NCBI GenBank assembly: GCA_022781505.1
Contig: JALETK010000144.1
Span: 1-37,641, forward strand
Length of the DNA stretch: 37,641 nt
Reading direction: 5' to 3'
Source: Clostridiales bacterium
GTDB taxonomy: Bacteria > Bacillota > Clostridia > Oscillospirales > Oscillospiraceae
The translations under genes and the position numbers were made by a program. Shown in pieces: positions 26,226 to 29,582 of this stretch. The notes under the pieces are model-generated. The model was not told the origin of the DNA and did no database searches. It was given only the letters and a program-made list of their open reading frames with translations. Each line of letters opens with the position of its first letter. Position 1 is the stretch's first letter.

Positions 26226-26301
26226 GCCGGTATAGCTCAGCCGGTAGAGCAACTGATTTGTAATCAGTAGGTCGGGGGTTCGAATCCGTCTACCGGCTCC
26301 A
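26226..26301 (+). tRNA. tRNA-Thr (anticodon TGT), CCA encoded
   Basis: GCCGGTA...TACCGGC acceptor stem, anticodon loop CTGATTTGTAATCAG, GGTTCGAATCC T-arm. Confidence 0.95.
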
Positions 26302-26324
26302 CCAGTTTTGAACGGAAATAATAT

Positions 26325-26409
26325 GGGGGAATTCCCGAGTGGCCAAAGGGGACAGACTGTAAATCTGCTGGCTATGCCTTCGGTGGTTCGAATCCACCTT
26401 CCCCCACCA
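26325..26409 (+). tRNA. tRNA-Tyr (anticodon GTA), CCA encoded
   Basis: GGGGGAA...TTCCCCC acceptor stem, CAGACTGTAAATCTG anticodon arm, long variable arm, GGTTCGAATCC. Confidence 0.95.
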
Positions 26410-27679: not shown

Positions 27680-27708
27680 TAGACATTTTTTCGGAAATGG
27701 GATATACT
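27680..27708 (+). promoter_or_regulatory. Sigma-A-type promoter for the GNAT-SecB operon
   Basis: TAGACA-17 bp-TATACT about 30 bp upstream of the GNAT start codon. Confidence 0.6.
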
Positions 27709-27739
27709 GTAGGAAACGCAAGTACCGGGTGGTGTGTCT

Positions 27740-28285
27740 ATGGGAACGCTGGAATCTATCCCTTTAGAGGGCGAGGATGTACTCCAGGGCTTTGACTGTG
27801 GAAATGCATCCGTCAATGCCCTGGTTGCCGAATCCTTTTATCCCCACTTGTTGAAGCAGTCGCGTACATACCAGGTCAAGCTGCAAAATCAGACCGTAGG
27901 TTTTTATTCCCTATCCGTCCGGGGGGTATCTCTTCTGAACTCGGACGCGCCTGTTGCAGAATTCTATTTTAAAGAGCCAAGCTTCGGCGCAATCTGTTTG
28001 GACTATCTTGCCGTGGACGCGAGAATTCATGGCCGGGGGATTGGCTCTGCCATTCTCCATTCCGTGATTACACAGGCCCGGGAGCTGGCCAAGGATTGGC
28101 CAATCCGGCTGTTTGTCCTGGATGCCCTTCGGGAAAAGGTTTCCTGGTATCGGGAGAGAGGCTTTGATGCTCTGATTCGCGCCGATCTGGACAAAAAAAC
28201 AGAAACCGTTGGTATGTATCTTGATCTCAGCTCCAAAGAGGAGCTGGATGCACTCGGGGCGTATACCGATGATTATTTCTCATAA
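27740..28285 (+). CDS. GNAT acetyltransferase, TacT-like
   Basis: GFDCGNASVNALVAESF, VGFYSLSVRGV, LDYLAVDARIHGRGIGSAILHSVI, LFVLDALREKVSWYRERGF. An alternative GTG start at 27734 exists. Confidence 0.85.
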   Translation: MGTLESIPLEGEDVLQGFDCGNASVNALVAESFYPHLLKQSRTYQVKLQNQTVGFYSLSVRGVSLLNSDAPVAEFYFKEPSFGAICLDYLAVDARIHGRGIGSAILHSVITQARELAKDWPIRLFVLDALREKVSWYRERGFDALIRADLDKKTETVGMYLDLSSKEELDALGAYTDDYFS

Positions 28286-28306
28286 TCTTTCTCAGGAGGT
28301 GTTTTT

Positions 28307-28714
28307 ATGCAATTAAATCGTCCCCTCTGTCTTCCCGCCGATGCCTGGAACGATCTCACCAGCAGGCTCTCCCATGTCAGTGAAGCGCGCCGGCAGAAGA
28401 CGGATGCCTTCCTGGAGGAGATTTCTCAGAACGTTCAGGTGACCCGTAACGGGCGCAGAATTCTTGTGGAATCGAACAATCTGGACGAAAACGCCATTCT
28501 CGCACTGCTCCAGCCCAAGAGCAGTCCGCCGGGCGCGGCGCTGTCTGCCGGTGTCAGCCGAAGCTACAGCATTCATATTCACTTCTCCATGGATTCCGAT
28601 TCTTTCCCTTTCCTGGGCAATCAGTCCGCTTCAGAAAGCCCCTATCAGGCCTGTGCCGCTCCTTCTGATCAATTCTACAGCATGGAAACCGGCTGCCGCC
28701 TCATGTCCGCATAA
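28307..28714 (+). CDS. Hypothetical protein, 135 aa; candidate antitoxin or partner of the GNAT
   Basis: Strong RBS (AGGAGGTGTTTTT-ATG), tight spacing with both neighbours; no family recognised. Confidence 0.75.
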   Translation: MQLNRPLCLPADAWNDLTSRLSHVSEARRQKTDAFLEEISQNVQVTRNGRRILVESNNLDENAILALLQPKSSPPGAALSAGVSRSYSIHIHFSMDSDSFPFLGNQSASESPYQACAAPSDQFYSMETGCRLMSA

Positions 28715-28727
28715 GATAAGGAGTGTA

Positions 28728-29150
28728 ATGACAATGGAAAAAAGTGCTTTCCAGTTTACCAACCCCCGGCTGGAGCGCCTGGAGTTTGTGGTACATGAGG
28801 GCTTTCAAAAAACCGGCAATCTCAACATGGACATCAAGCTCTCCGTTCACACACAGCGGTTTCAAAACAGCGACGGCACACCCTCCAACCAGGCAACCGT
28901 TATGATTACGCTTGCAATCGGTTCAAAGGACGATACCTCGCCCTTTTACATGGAAGCCGACGAAGCGGCCAATTTCAAGTGGGAGGAAGCCGCCTTCGAC
29001 GATGCTCAAATCGAGCTGCTTCTGAAGCAAAACGGCGCCGCTCTGCTGGTTTCCTATCTCCGTCCCATTCTCTCCGGGATTACGGCGGCTTCTCCCTATC
29101 CCGCGTATAATCTGCCTTATTTGAATCTGACCACGCTGCAGGAACAATAA
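28728..29150 (+). CDS. SecB-like chaperone
   Basis: FQFTNPRLERLEFVVHEGF N-terminal pattern and C-terminal LLKQNGAALLVSYLRPILSGITAASPYPAYNLPYLNLTTL typical of SecB folds; start at 28728 behind AAGGAG. Confidence 0.8.
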   Translation: MTMEKSAFQFTNPRLERLEFVVHEGFQKTGNLNMDIKLSVHTQRFQNSDGTPSNQATVMITLAIGSKDDTSPFYMEADEAANFKWEEAAFDDAQIELLLKQNGAALLVSYLRPILSGITAASPYPAYNLPYLNLTTLQEQ

Positions 29151-29190
29151 TGCTCTTTCTCCAATGGAGACAACCGGAAAGTAAAACATT

Positions 29191-29520
29191 ATGAGTGAAG
29201 CATTTGACAATTCCATTTACCGGGGATATCTGGAGCAGTTTCCTGAAAAGTCGGAGCTCTGCAGGAAGTACCGGGCCAAGCCGGTGGAGCTGATCTACGC
29301 CCGGCGGAGAAATCTCCTGGCGCAGTTCCTCTCCGAGGCCGATGCCTCCCAGGCCGGAAACGGCCACGCCCTGGCCGCGGAGGACATCGCCCGGGGCTTT
29401 GCAAACCACCAGGGCTGCCCCCGGAAGGCCCTGGGGAATCTCCCGTGGGAAGCGGTTCAGAAAACTGCCGGACTTCTGTTCCGGGAGAGCTGCCGGGAGC
29501 TCCGGGCCAGGTACGGCTGA
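29191..29520 (+). CDS. Hypothetical protein, 109 aa
   Basis: Co-directional last ORF before a strong terminator; no family recognised. Confidence 0.6.
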   Translation: MSEAFDNSIYRGYLEQFPEKSELCRKYRAKPVELIYARRRNLLAQFLSEADASQAGNGHALAAEDIARGFANHQGCPRKALGNLPWEAVQKTAGLLFRESCRELRARYG

Positions 29521-29524
29521 CCTT

Positions 29525-29582
29525 AAAACAGGAAAGGGCTGTCTCAAAACTCGTTTTGAGACAGCCCCTTCCTGTTTTTTTT
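29525..29582 (+). terminator. Strong intrinsic terminator closing the GNAT-SecB operon
   Basis: AACAGGAAAGGGCTGTCTCAAAACTCGTTTTGAGACAGCCCCTTCCTGTTTTTTTT, a long near-perfect hairpin plus T-tract. Confidence 0.9.

What the first reader, a model, noticed from the sequence alone, without database searches (positions are those of the whole stretch)
27680..29582. Candidate toxin-antitoxin-chaperone (TAC)-like operon: TacT-like GNAT, unknown 135-aa protein, SecB-like chaperone, unknown 109-aa protein
Seen directly: four tightly spaced co-directional ORFs bounded by a promoter (TAGACA-17-TATACT) and a strong terminator hairpin. Gene 1 has TacT-like GNAT motifs (FDCGNASVNAL; AVDARIHGRGIGSAIL; LDALREKVSWYRERGF). 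Gene 3 has the SecB C-terminal pattern. Established: SecB-like chaperones in TAC modules (M. tuberculosis HigB-HigA-Rv1957) protect antitoxins via a C-terminal chaperone-addiction segment, in the order toxin, antitoxin, chaperone. Inference: the 135-aa ORF is an antitoxin of unrecognised fold, and its hydrophobic/aromatic tail (SYSIHIHFSMDSDSFPFLGNQ...) would be the chaperone-addiction segment. SecB is also generally absent from Firmicutes as an export factor, so a dedicated partner is plausible. The fourth gene (109 aa) would be a new component.
Basis: partly seen in the sequence, partly recalled or inferred. Interest (0 to 1): 0.8.

Follow-up and report, generated by a model that had tools for sequence, protein, structure and literature searches.

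The report
Chaperone-guarded acetyltransferase toxin–antitoxin operon

Summary
Four co-directional ORFs lie at 27740-29520 between a promoter-like site and a strong terminator. The first three form a conserved module: GNAT (181 aa), unknown protein X (135 aa), SecB-like chaperone (140 aa). The same three genes, same order, 10-23 bp gaps, occur in three other genomes (G010, G129, L021) with different neighbours. The GNAT's nearest solved structures, by sequence and by fold, are toxins of toxin-antitoxin systems (TacT, AtaT, KacT, GmvT). Related SecB-like genes elsewhere sit third in toxin-antitoxin-chaperone (TAC) operons with ADP-ribosyltransferase, HigB-like or unknown toxins. X has an N-terminal ~70-residue domain (perhaps MraZ/AbrB-like), a tail predicted disordered and a C-terminal -SA; 23 of 27 proteins in the antitoxin position of TAC operons examined end in A. 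This fits a chaperone-dependent antitoxin degraded by ClpP. The fourth ORF (109 aa) is not part: it matches only the C-terminal third of a ~305-aa HExxH-containing protein that is unlinked elsewhere. Best reading: a new TAC variant with a GNAT toxin, possibly anti-phage. No activity was tested.

The parts
27680..27708 (+). sigma-70-type promoter-like site TAGACA-17-TATACT
   Evidence: 10/12 match, about one expected by chance in shuffles, so only suggestive
27740..28285 (+). GNAT acetyltransferase, predicted toxin (181 aa; GTG at 27734 is a possible alternative start); predicted catalytic Tyr137 codon at 28148-28150
   Evidence: Pfam/PHROG acetyltransferase hits; nearest PDB sequences and folds are GNAT toxins of TA systems; W136-Y137 invariant in four homologs
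28307..28714 (+). Protein X (135 aa), predicted antitoxin
   Evidence: same position in G010, G129 and L021; no Pfam/NCBIfam/PADLOC/PHROG family; AGGAGGTG ribosome-binding site upstream
28307..28513 (+). X N-terminal domain (aa 1-69), possibly MraZ/AbrB-like
   Evidence: profile hits to MraZ; unselected MraZ gives a weaker signal in the same register; low-confidence model has strand-helix-helix-strand-strand-helix order
28514..28711 (+). X C-terminal tail (aa 70-135), predicted disordered, ending ...LMSA; candidate chaperone-addiction region and ClpXP-type end
   Evidence: pLDDT 31-44; 45% STNQPG; C-terminal A shared by 23/27 TAC antitoxin-position proteins against 11/95 background proteins
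28728..29150 (+). SecB-like TAC chaperone (140 aa)
   Evidence: Pfam SecB over cut-off; PADLOC CmdC-type; clusters with other TAC chaperones
29525..29578 (+). Intrinsic terminator: 26-nt inverted repeat followed by a T-run
   Evidence: lies after the 109-aa gene remnant, which is not itself part of the module

Best explanation
The GNAT, X and SecB-like genes form a toxin-antitoxin-chaperone module. The GNAT is a growth-arresting toxin, most likely an aminoacyl-tRNA N-acetyltransferase like TacT/AtaT. X binds and silences it. X's C-terminal tail keeps it unstable unless the dedicated SecB-like chaperone holds it, and X's C-terminal -SA/-AA end marks it for ClpP-type proteolysis. When something occupies the chaperone, such as an abundant phage protein (as the T4 capsid protein does for CmdTAC) or misfolded protein under stress, X is degraded and the GNAT is freed to arrest growth. 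Shown here: gene order, conservation, family and fold assignments, C-terminal signature. Inferred: toxicity, tRNA target, X-toxin and X-chaperone binding, proteolysis, phage trigger.
For: Three-gene synteny with 10-23 bp gaps in four genomes; to the window, SecB is 42-50%, GNAT 32-45% and X 16-28% identical. Flanking genes differ: the APH and 109-aa relatives lie on other contigs in G010. In 396 genomes of the order the only GNATs at E<=1e-15 were the window's and G129's, both beside the chaperone; each of the four carriers has one match. GNAT: all top 24 PDB fold matches are described as toxins or toxin complexes; 16 of 17 PDB sequence matches are GNAT toxins (named except 6ajn, which I know as AtaT). 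The Tyr equivalent to TacT Y140 and the Ala equivalent to A93, both required for toxicity (PMC4942678), are invariant. Related chaperones elsewhere sit third after CmdT-like, HigB/HigA or unknown pairs. 23/27 antitoxin-position proteins end in A against 11.6% background; PMC11618068 reports that CmdA, like other TAC antitoxins, ends in LAA, a ClpXP signal, and is degraded by ClpP. Chaperone addiction is published for HigBA, MqsRA and HicAB TACs (PMC5105189, PMC6377645) and phage defence for CmdTAC and MqsRAC (PMC9519451, PMC11618068).
Against: Nothing was tested in cells. The Arg of the TacT tRNA groove (R91, probed in PMC4942678) is Tyr or Phe in this clade, so target or binding mode may differ. 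X has no recognised antitoxin domain and its model is poor (pLDDT 43). The SecB match is only just over the Pfam cut-off. The C-terminal A count includes near-identical proteins. Only four loci are known, and L021 comes from a metagenome bin of doubtful label.
Confidence: 0.8

Rival explanations
1. The GNAT is a TAC toxin but not a tRNA acetyltransferase: it has another target (as PacT is reported to act on the Fur regulator), with the same chaperone-gated antitoxin control.
For: The TacT R91 equivalent is not conserved and the clade has WY..xGF where TacT-type toxins have FY..xGF; a GNAT toxin with another reported target exists (PMC9561280, title and abstract).
Against: Closest folds include tRNA-bound tRNA-acetylating toxins (7f36, 7chd), though these are also well sampled in the PDB.
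Confidence: 0.25
2. A non-toxic GNAT modifying enzyme with a partner protein and a chaperone, not a toxin-antitoxin system.
For: No toxicity data; GNATs are a huge family and most are not toxins; some acetyltransferases in TA-like two-gene loci lie outside the true toxin clade (PMC9177977).
Against: Fold and sequence neighbours are toxins; the chaperone family otherwise accompanies toxin pairs; sparse distribution with changing neighbours; X ends like TAC antitoxins.
Confidence: 0.12
3. All four genes form one system, with the 109-aa protein as a fourth component.
For: Same strand, 40 bp gap, shared terminator.
Against: Absent after SecB in G010, G129 and L021; homologs are ~305-aa proteins with HEAQH on other contigs, of which the ORF keeps only the C-terminal third without the zinc motif; GC3 77% against 55-64% in the module.
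Confidence: 0.03

Closest known systems
CmdTAC (PD-T4-9), E. coli ECOR22 anti-phage TAC
   Same: Order toxin-antitoxin-chaperone; chaperone matches PADLOC PD-T4-9_C; poorly conserved antitoxin with disordered tail ending in A
   Different: Toxin is a GNAT acetyltransferase, not an ADP-ribosyltransferase; no PADLOC match of X to a CmdA model
M. tuberculosis HigB1-HigA1-Rv1957 TAC (and MqsRA, HicAB TACs)
   Same: Three-gene order and SecB-like chaperone with a variable antitoxin C-terminal extension
   Different: Toxin is not an endoribonuclease; X lacks a detectable HTH, MqsA or HicB domain
TacAT/AtaRT/KacAT/GmvAT (GNAT-DUF1778, type II)
   Same: GNAT toxin fold, catalytic Tyr and acetyl-CoA loop
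   Different: Toxin gene comes first; antitoxin is not DUF1778/RHH (nor DUF4065) by Pfam scan; SecB-like chaperone present; TacT R91 not conserved
MraZ (SpoVT-AbrB-type regulator)
   Same: Possible similarity of X residues 8-54 to the C-terminal half of MraZ
   Different: Half the length, not next to rsmH, attached disordered tail; homology not established

Membership tests
Toxin-antitoxin-chaperone (TAC) systems | Three co-directional genes in the order toxin, antitoxin, chaperone | tested here: met
   window and three relatives, gaps 10-23 bp; roles of the first two genes are inferred
Toxin-antitoxin-chaperone (TAC) systems | SecB-like chaperone of the TAC type | tested here: met
   PF02556 over cut-off, PADLOC CmdC E=9e-9, clusters with chaperones of other TACs
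Toxin-antitoxin-chaperone (TAC) systems | First gene encodes a toxin | tested here: inconclusive
   fold and sequence nearest to GNAT TA toxins, catalytic Tyr kept; toxicity not testable
Toxin-antitoxin-chaperone (TAC) systems | Antitoxin with variable C-terminal chaperone-addiction extension | tested here: inconclusive
   tail predicted disordered and poorly conserved; binding not tested
Toxin-antitoxin-chaperone (TAC) systems | Antitoxin C-terminus of ClpXP-recognition type (LAA-like) | tested here: met
   the four X proteins end in SA, AA, SA, AA; 23/27 across TACs end in A; sequence only, degradation not tested
Toxin-antitoxin-chaperone (TAC) systems | Toxin neutralisation depends on the chaperone | not testable with these tools
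   needs co-expression experiments
GNAT-DUF1778 (TacAT) toxin-antitoxin family | DUF1778/RHH antitoxin adjacent | tested here: not met
   no Pfam family for X or its three homologs; the upstream gene is an APH-type kinase
GNAT-DUF1778 (TacAT) toxin-antitoxin family | GNAT toxin fold with catalytic Tyr and acetyl-CoA site | tested here: met
GNAT-DUF1778 (TacAT) toxin-antitoxin family | Basic tRNA-groove Arg (TacT R91) | tested here: not met
   Tyr or Phe at that column in all four
CmdTAC | ADP-ribosyltransferase toxin CmdT | tested here: not met
   first gene is a GNAT; no PD-T4-9_A match

The most novel reading that the evidence does not exclude
A chaperone-gated anti-phage GNAT system whose antitoxin is a new type built from half of an MraZ/AbrB-like regulator plus a chaperone-addiction tail, with a GNAT whose target differs from that of TacT.
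Probability: 0.2. Interest if true: 0.7.

Novelty: new variant of a known kind. Interest (0 to 1): 0.55.

Why it matters
TAC toxins named in the papers read are endoribonucleases (HigB, MqsR, HicA) and an mRNA ADP-ribosyltransferase (CmdT). A GNAT here would show that SecB-type chaperone control has also been attached to the acetyltransferase toxins, which are otherwise described with DUF1778 or DUF4065 antitoxins. It supports the view that the chaperone plus a disordered antitoxin tail is a portable sensor into which different toxins are plugged, and gives a compact case for testing what phage or stress signal occupies the chaperone in gut Clostridia.

Tried and rejected
The 109-aa ORF as a TAC component: rejected. 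MraZ homology of X: the six MraZ hits (E 3e-5 to 4e-3) came out of a scan of 169 genomes and fall in two families; hhalign against those selected MraZ gave 92-94%, but that set was chosen because it matched. Unselected MraZ from the three carrier genomes gave only 3.7-5.4% when aligned (40% for the G129 one alone), though in the same register, above 150 column shuffles (20.9 against a maximum of 18.6) and above 178 unrelated proteins (maximum 20.2): kept as a lead only. Structure of X: pLDDT 43, and a PDB fold search gave nothing at E<=0.001. Phage records: no SecB relative. Viral-contig scans failed four times at the server. The first genome-contig scan, with one sequence, found nothing. Literature: no paper found joining SecB/TAC with an acetyltransferase toxin, within an open-access library only.

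Full report
Observation. The four ORFs exist on the + strand: GNAT 27740-28285, X 28307-28714, SecB-like 28728-29150, and a 109-aa ORF 29191-29520. The promoter-like site TAGACA-17-TATACT (27680-27708) is there, but about one such match is expected by chance; the terminator is strong. X and SecB have good ribosome-binding sites (AGGAGGTG, AAGGAG); the 109-aa ORF does not.

Families. The GNAT matches Pfam Acetyltransf_1 and PHROG 1758; the SecB-like protein matches PF02556 just over its cut-off and the CmdC model of PADLOC; X and the 109-aa protein match nothing.

The unit is three genes. A search for the SecB-like protein found the same GNAT-X-SecB order in G010 (same genus; Oscillospiraceae MAG SIG498) and G129 (same family; Pseudoflavonifractor sp. 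An44), and a contig scan added L021. Intergenic gaps are 21/13, 22/16, 23/21 and 20/10 bp. X is the least conserved (16-28% to the window), as PMC9519451 describes for the antitoxins of CmdTAC relatives. Neighbours differ: in G010 the APH relative and the 109-aa relative lie on other contigs. The module's GC is 51-56% between neighbours of 64% and 63%. It is sparse: of 61 same-genus genomes, only the window's and G010 have the chaperone. This looks like a horizontally moving module.

The GNAT belongs with toxins. In a survey of 396 genomes of the order, a profile of the four GNATs found only the window and G129 at E<=1e-15, both beside the chaperone; each of the four carriers has one match. 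A profile search of the PDB and a fold search with the AlphaFold2 model (pLDDT 71) both return GNAT toxins of TA systems first: 7byy ('bacterial toxin'), TacT, KacT, GmvT, AtaT2, AtaT, TacT2, TacT3; other GNATs follow from rank 25. The Tyr equivalent to TacT Y140 and the Ala equivalent to A93, whose substitution abolishes TacT toxicity (PMC4942678), are invariant; the R91 equivalent is not. So the target or its binding may not be as in TacT.

The chaperone belongs with TAC chaperones. Its relatives in Clostridia, other Bacillota and lactobacillus plasmids sit third in operons with a CmdT-like ADP-ribosyltransferase plus a small protein, a HigB/HigA pair, an HTH protein, or an unknown pair. A tree groups three of the four GNAT-associated chaperones (96/87) inside a set of ten (98/92) that also holds the fourth and four of the unknown-toxin class. 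Toxins have probably been exchanged over a common chaperone.

The antitoxin candidate. X has an N-terminal ~70-residue part and a tail of low predicted confidence, rich in STNQPG. All four X proteins end in SA or AA, and 23 of 27 proteins in the antitoxin position of these operons end in A, against 11 of 95 background proteins (some rows are near-identical, so no exact p-value is claimed). PMC11618068 states that CmdA, like antitoxins of other TAC systems, ends in LAA, a ClpXP signal. X's N-part has a suggestive but unproven resemblance to MraZ; an own model and fold search did not help.

The fourth ORF. Its relatives in the genus are ~300-aa proteins with an HEAQH motif; the ORF matches only the region after that motif. 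It is a truncated gene, unlinked elsewhere, and not part of the module.

Mechanism. Best supported is TAC logic: the chaperone protects X, X silences the GNAT, and loss of chaperone supply exposes X to ClpP and frees the toxin. The trigger could be a phage protein, as T4 capsid protein is for CmdTAC (PMC11618068). Next to the module lies an ATPase gene that matches a candidate defence family (PDC-S01), which is in keeping with a defence site but proves nothing. Shown here: anatomy, conservation, family and fold, C-terminal signature. Inferred: toxicity, target, binding, proteolysis and trigger.

Novelty. TAC toxins in the papers read are RNases and CmdT (PMC5105189, PMC3968373, PMC11618068). 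Searches for SecB or TAC together with an acetyltransferase toxin found no report, within an open-access library. GNAT toxins are described with DUF1778 or DUF4065 antitoxins (PMC9177977). I rate it a new variant of a known kind.

Noticed in passing
L014, L023, L024, L038, L040 (upstream of SecB-like genes): A second uncharacterised TAC class: a 146-195-aa protein with a C-terminal HxDWW-type motif, then a 199-242-aa protein ending in AA, then a SecB-like gene. No Pfam cut-off or PADLOC match for the pair tested (L038).
   Followed up: partly
window:29191-29520: 109-aa ORF is a C-terminal fragment of a ~305-aa HExxH-containing protein family that several genomes of the genus carry intact.
   Followed up: yes
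window:29727-31067 and 26226-26409: AAA_14/DUF4143 ATPase next to the module strongly matches the PADLOC candidate defence family PDC-S01 (E=1.6e-108), and two tRNA genes lie upstream, so the site may be a defence or insertion hot spot.
   Followed up: partly
window:29595-29693: Three imperfect 33-nt direct repeats between the terminator and the ATPase gene.
   Followed up: no
window:23466-23819: Tandem repeats of about 48 nt encoding ...ICHPEAQPKDL... in one frame, between the purE-like and phosphate-transporter-like genes.
   Followed up: no
L021: Contig titled Muribaculaceae MAG carries the GNAT-X-SecB module; neighbouring genes look Clostridia-like to me, so the label may be a binning error.
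   Followed up: no
L037 (G629): SecB-like gene close to the GNAT-type set with no recognisable toxin or antitoxin ORF upstream: a possible decayed or solitary copy.
   Followed up: no
L078:2275-2962: Paenibacillus plasmid GNAT 34% identical to the window's GNAT, preceded by an overlapping 58-aa ORF and with no SecB-like gene annotated: possible two-gene relative.
   Followed up: no
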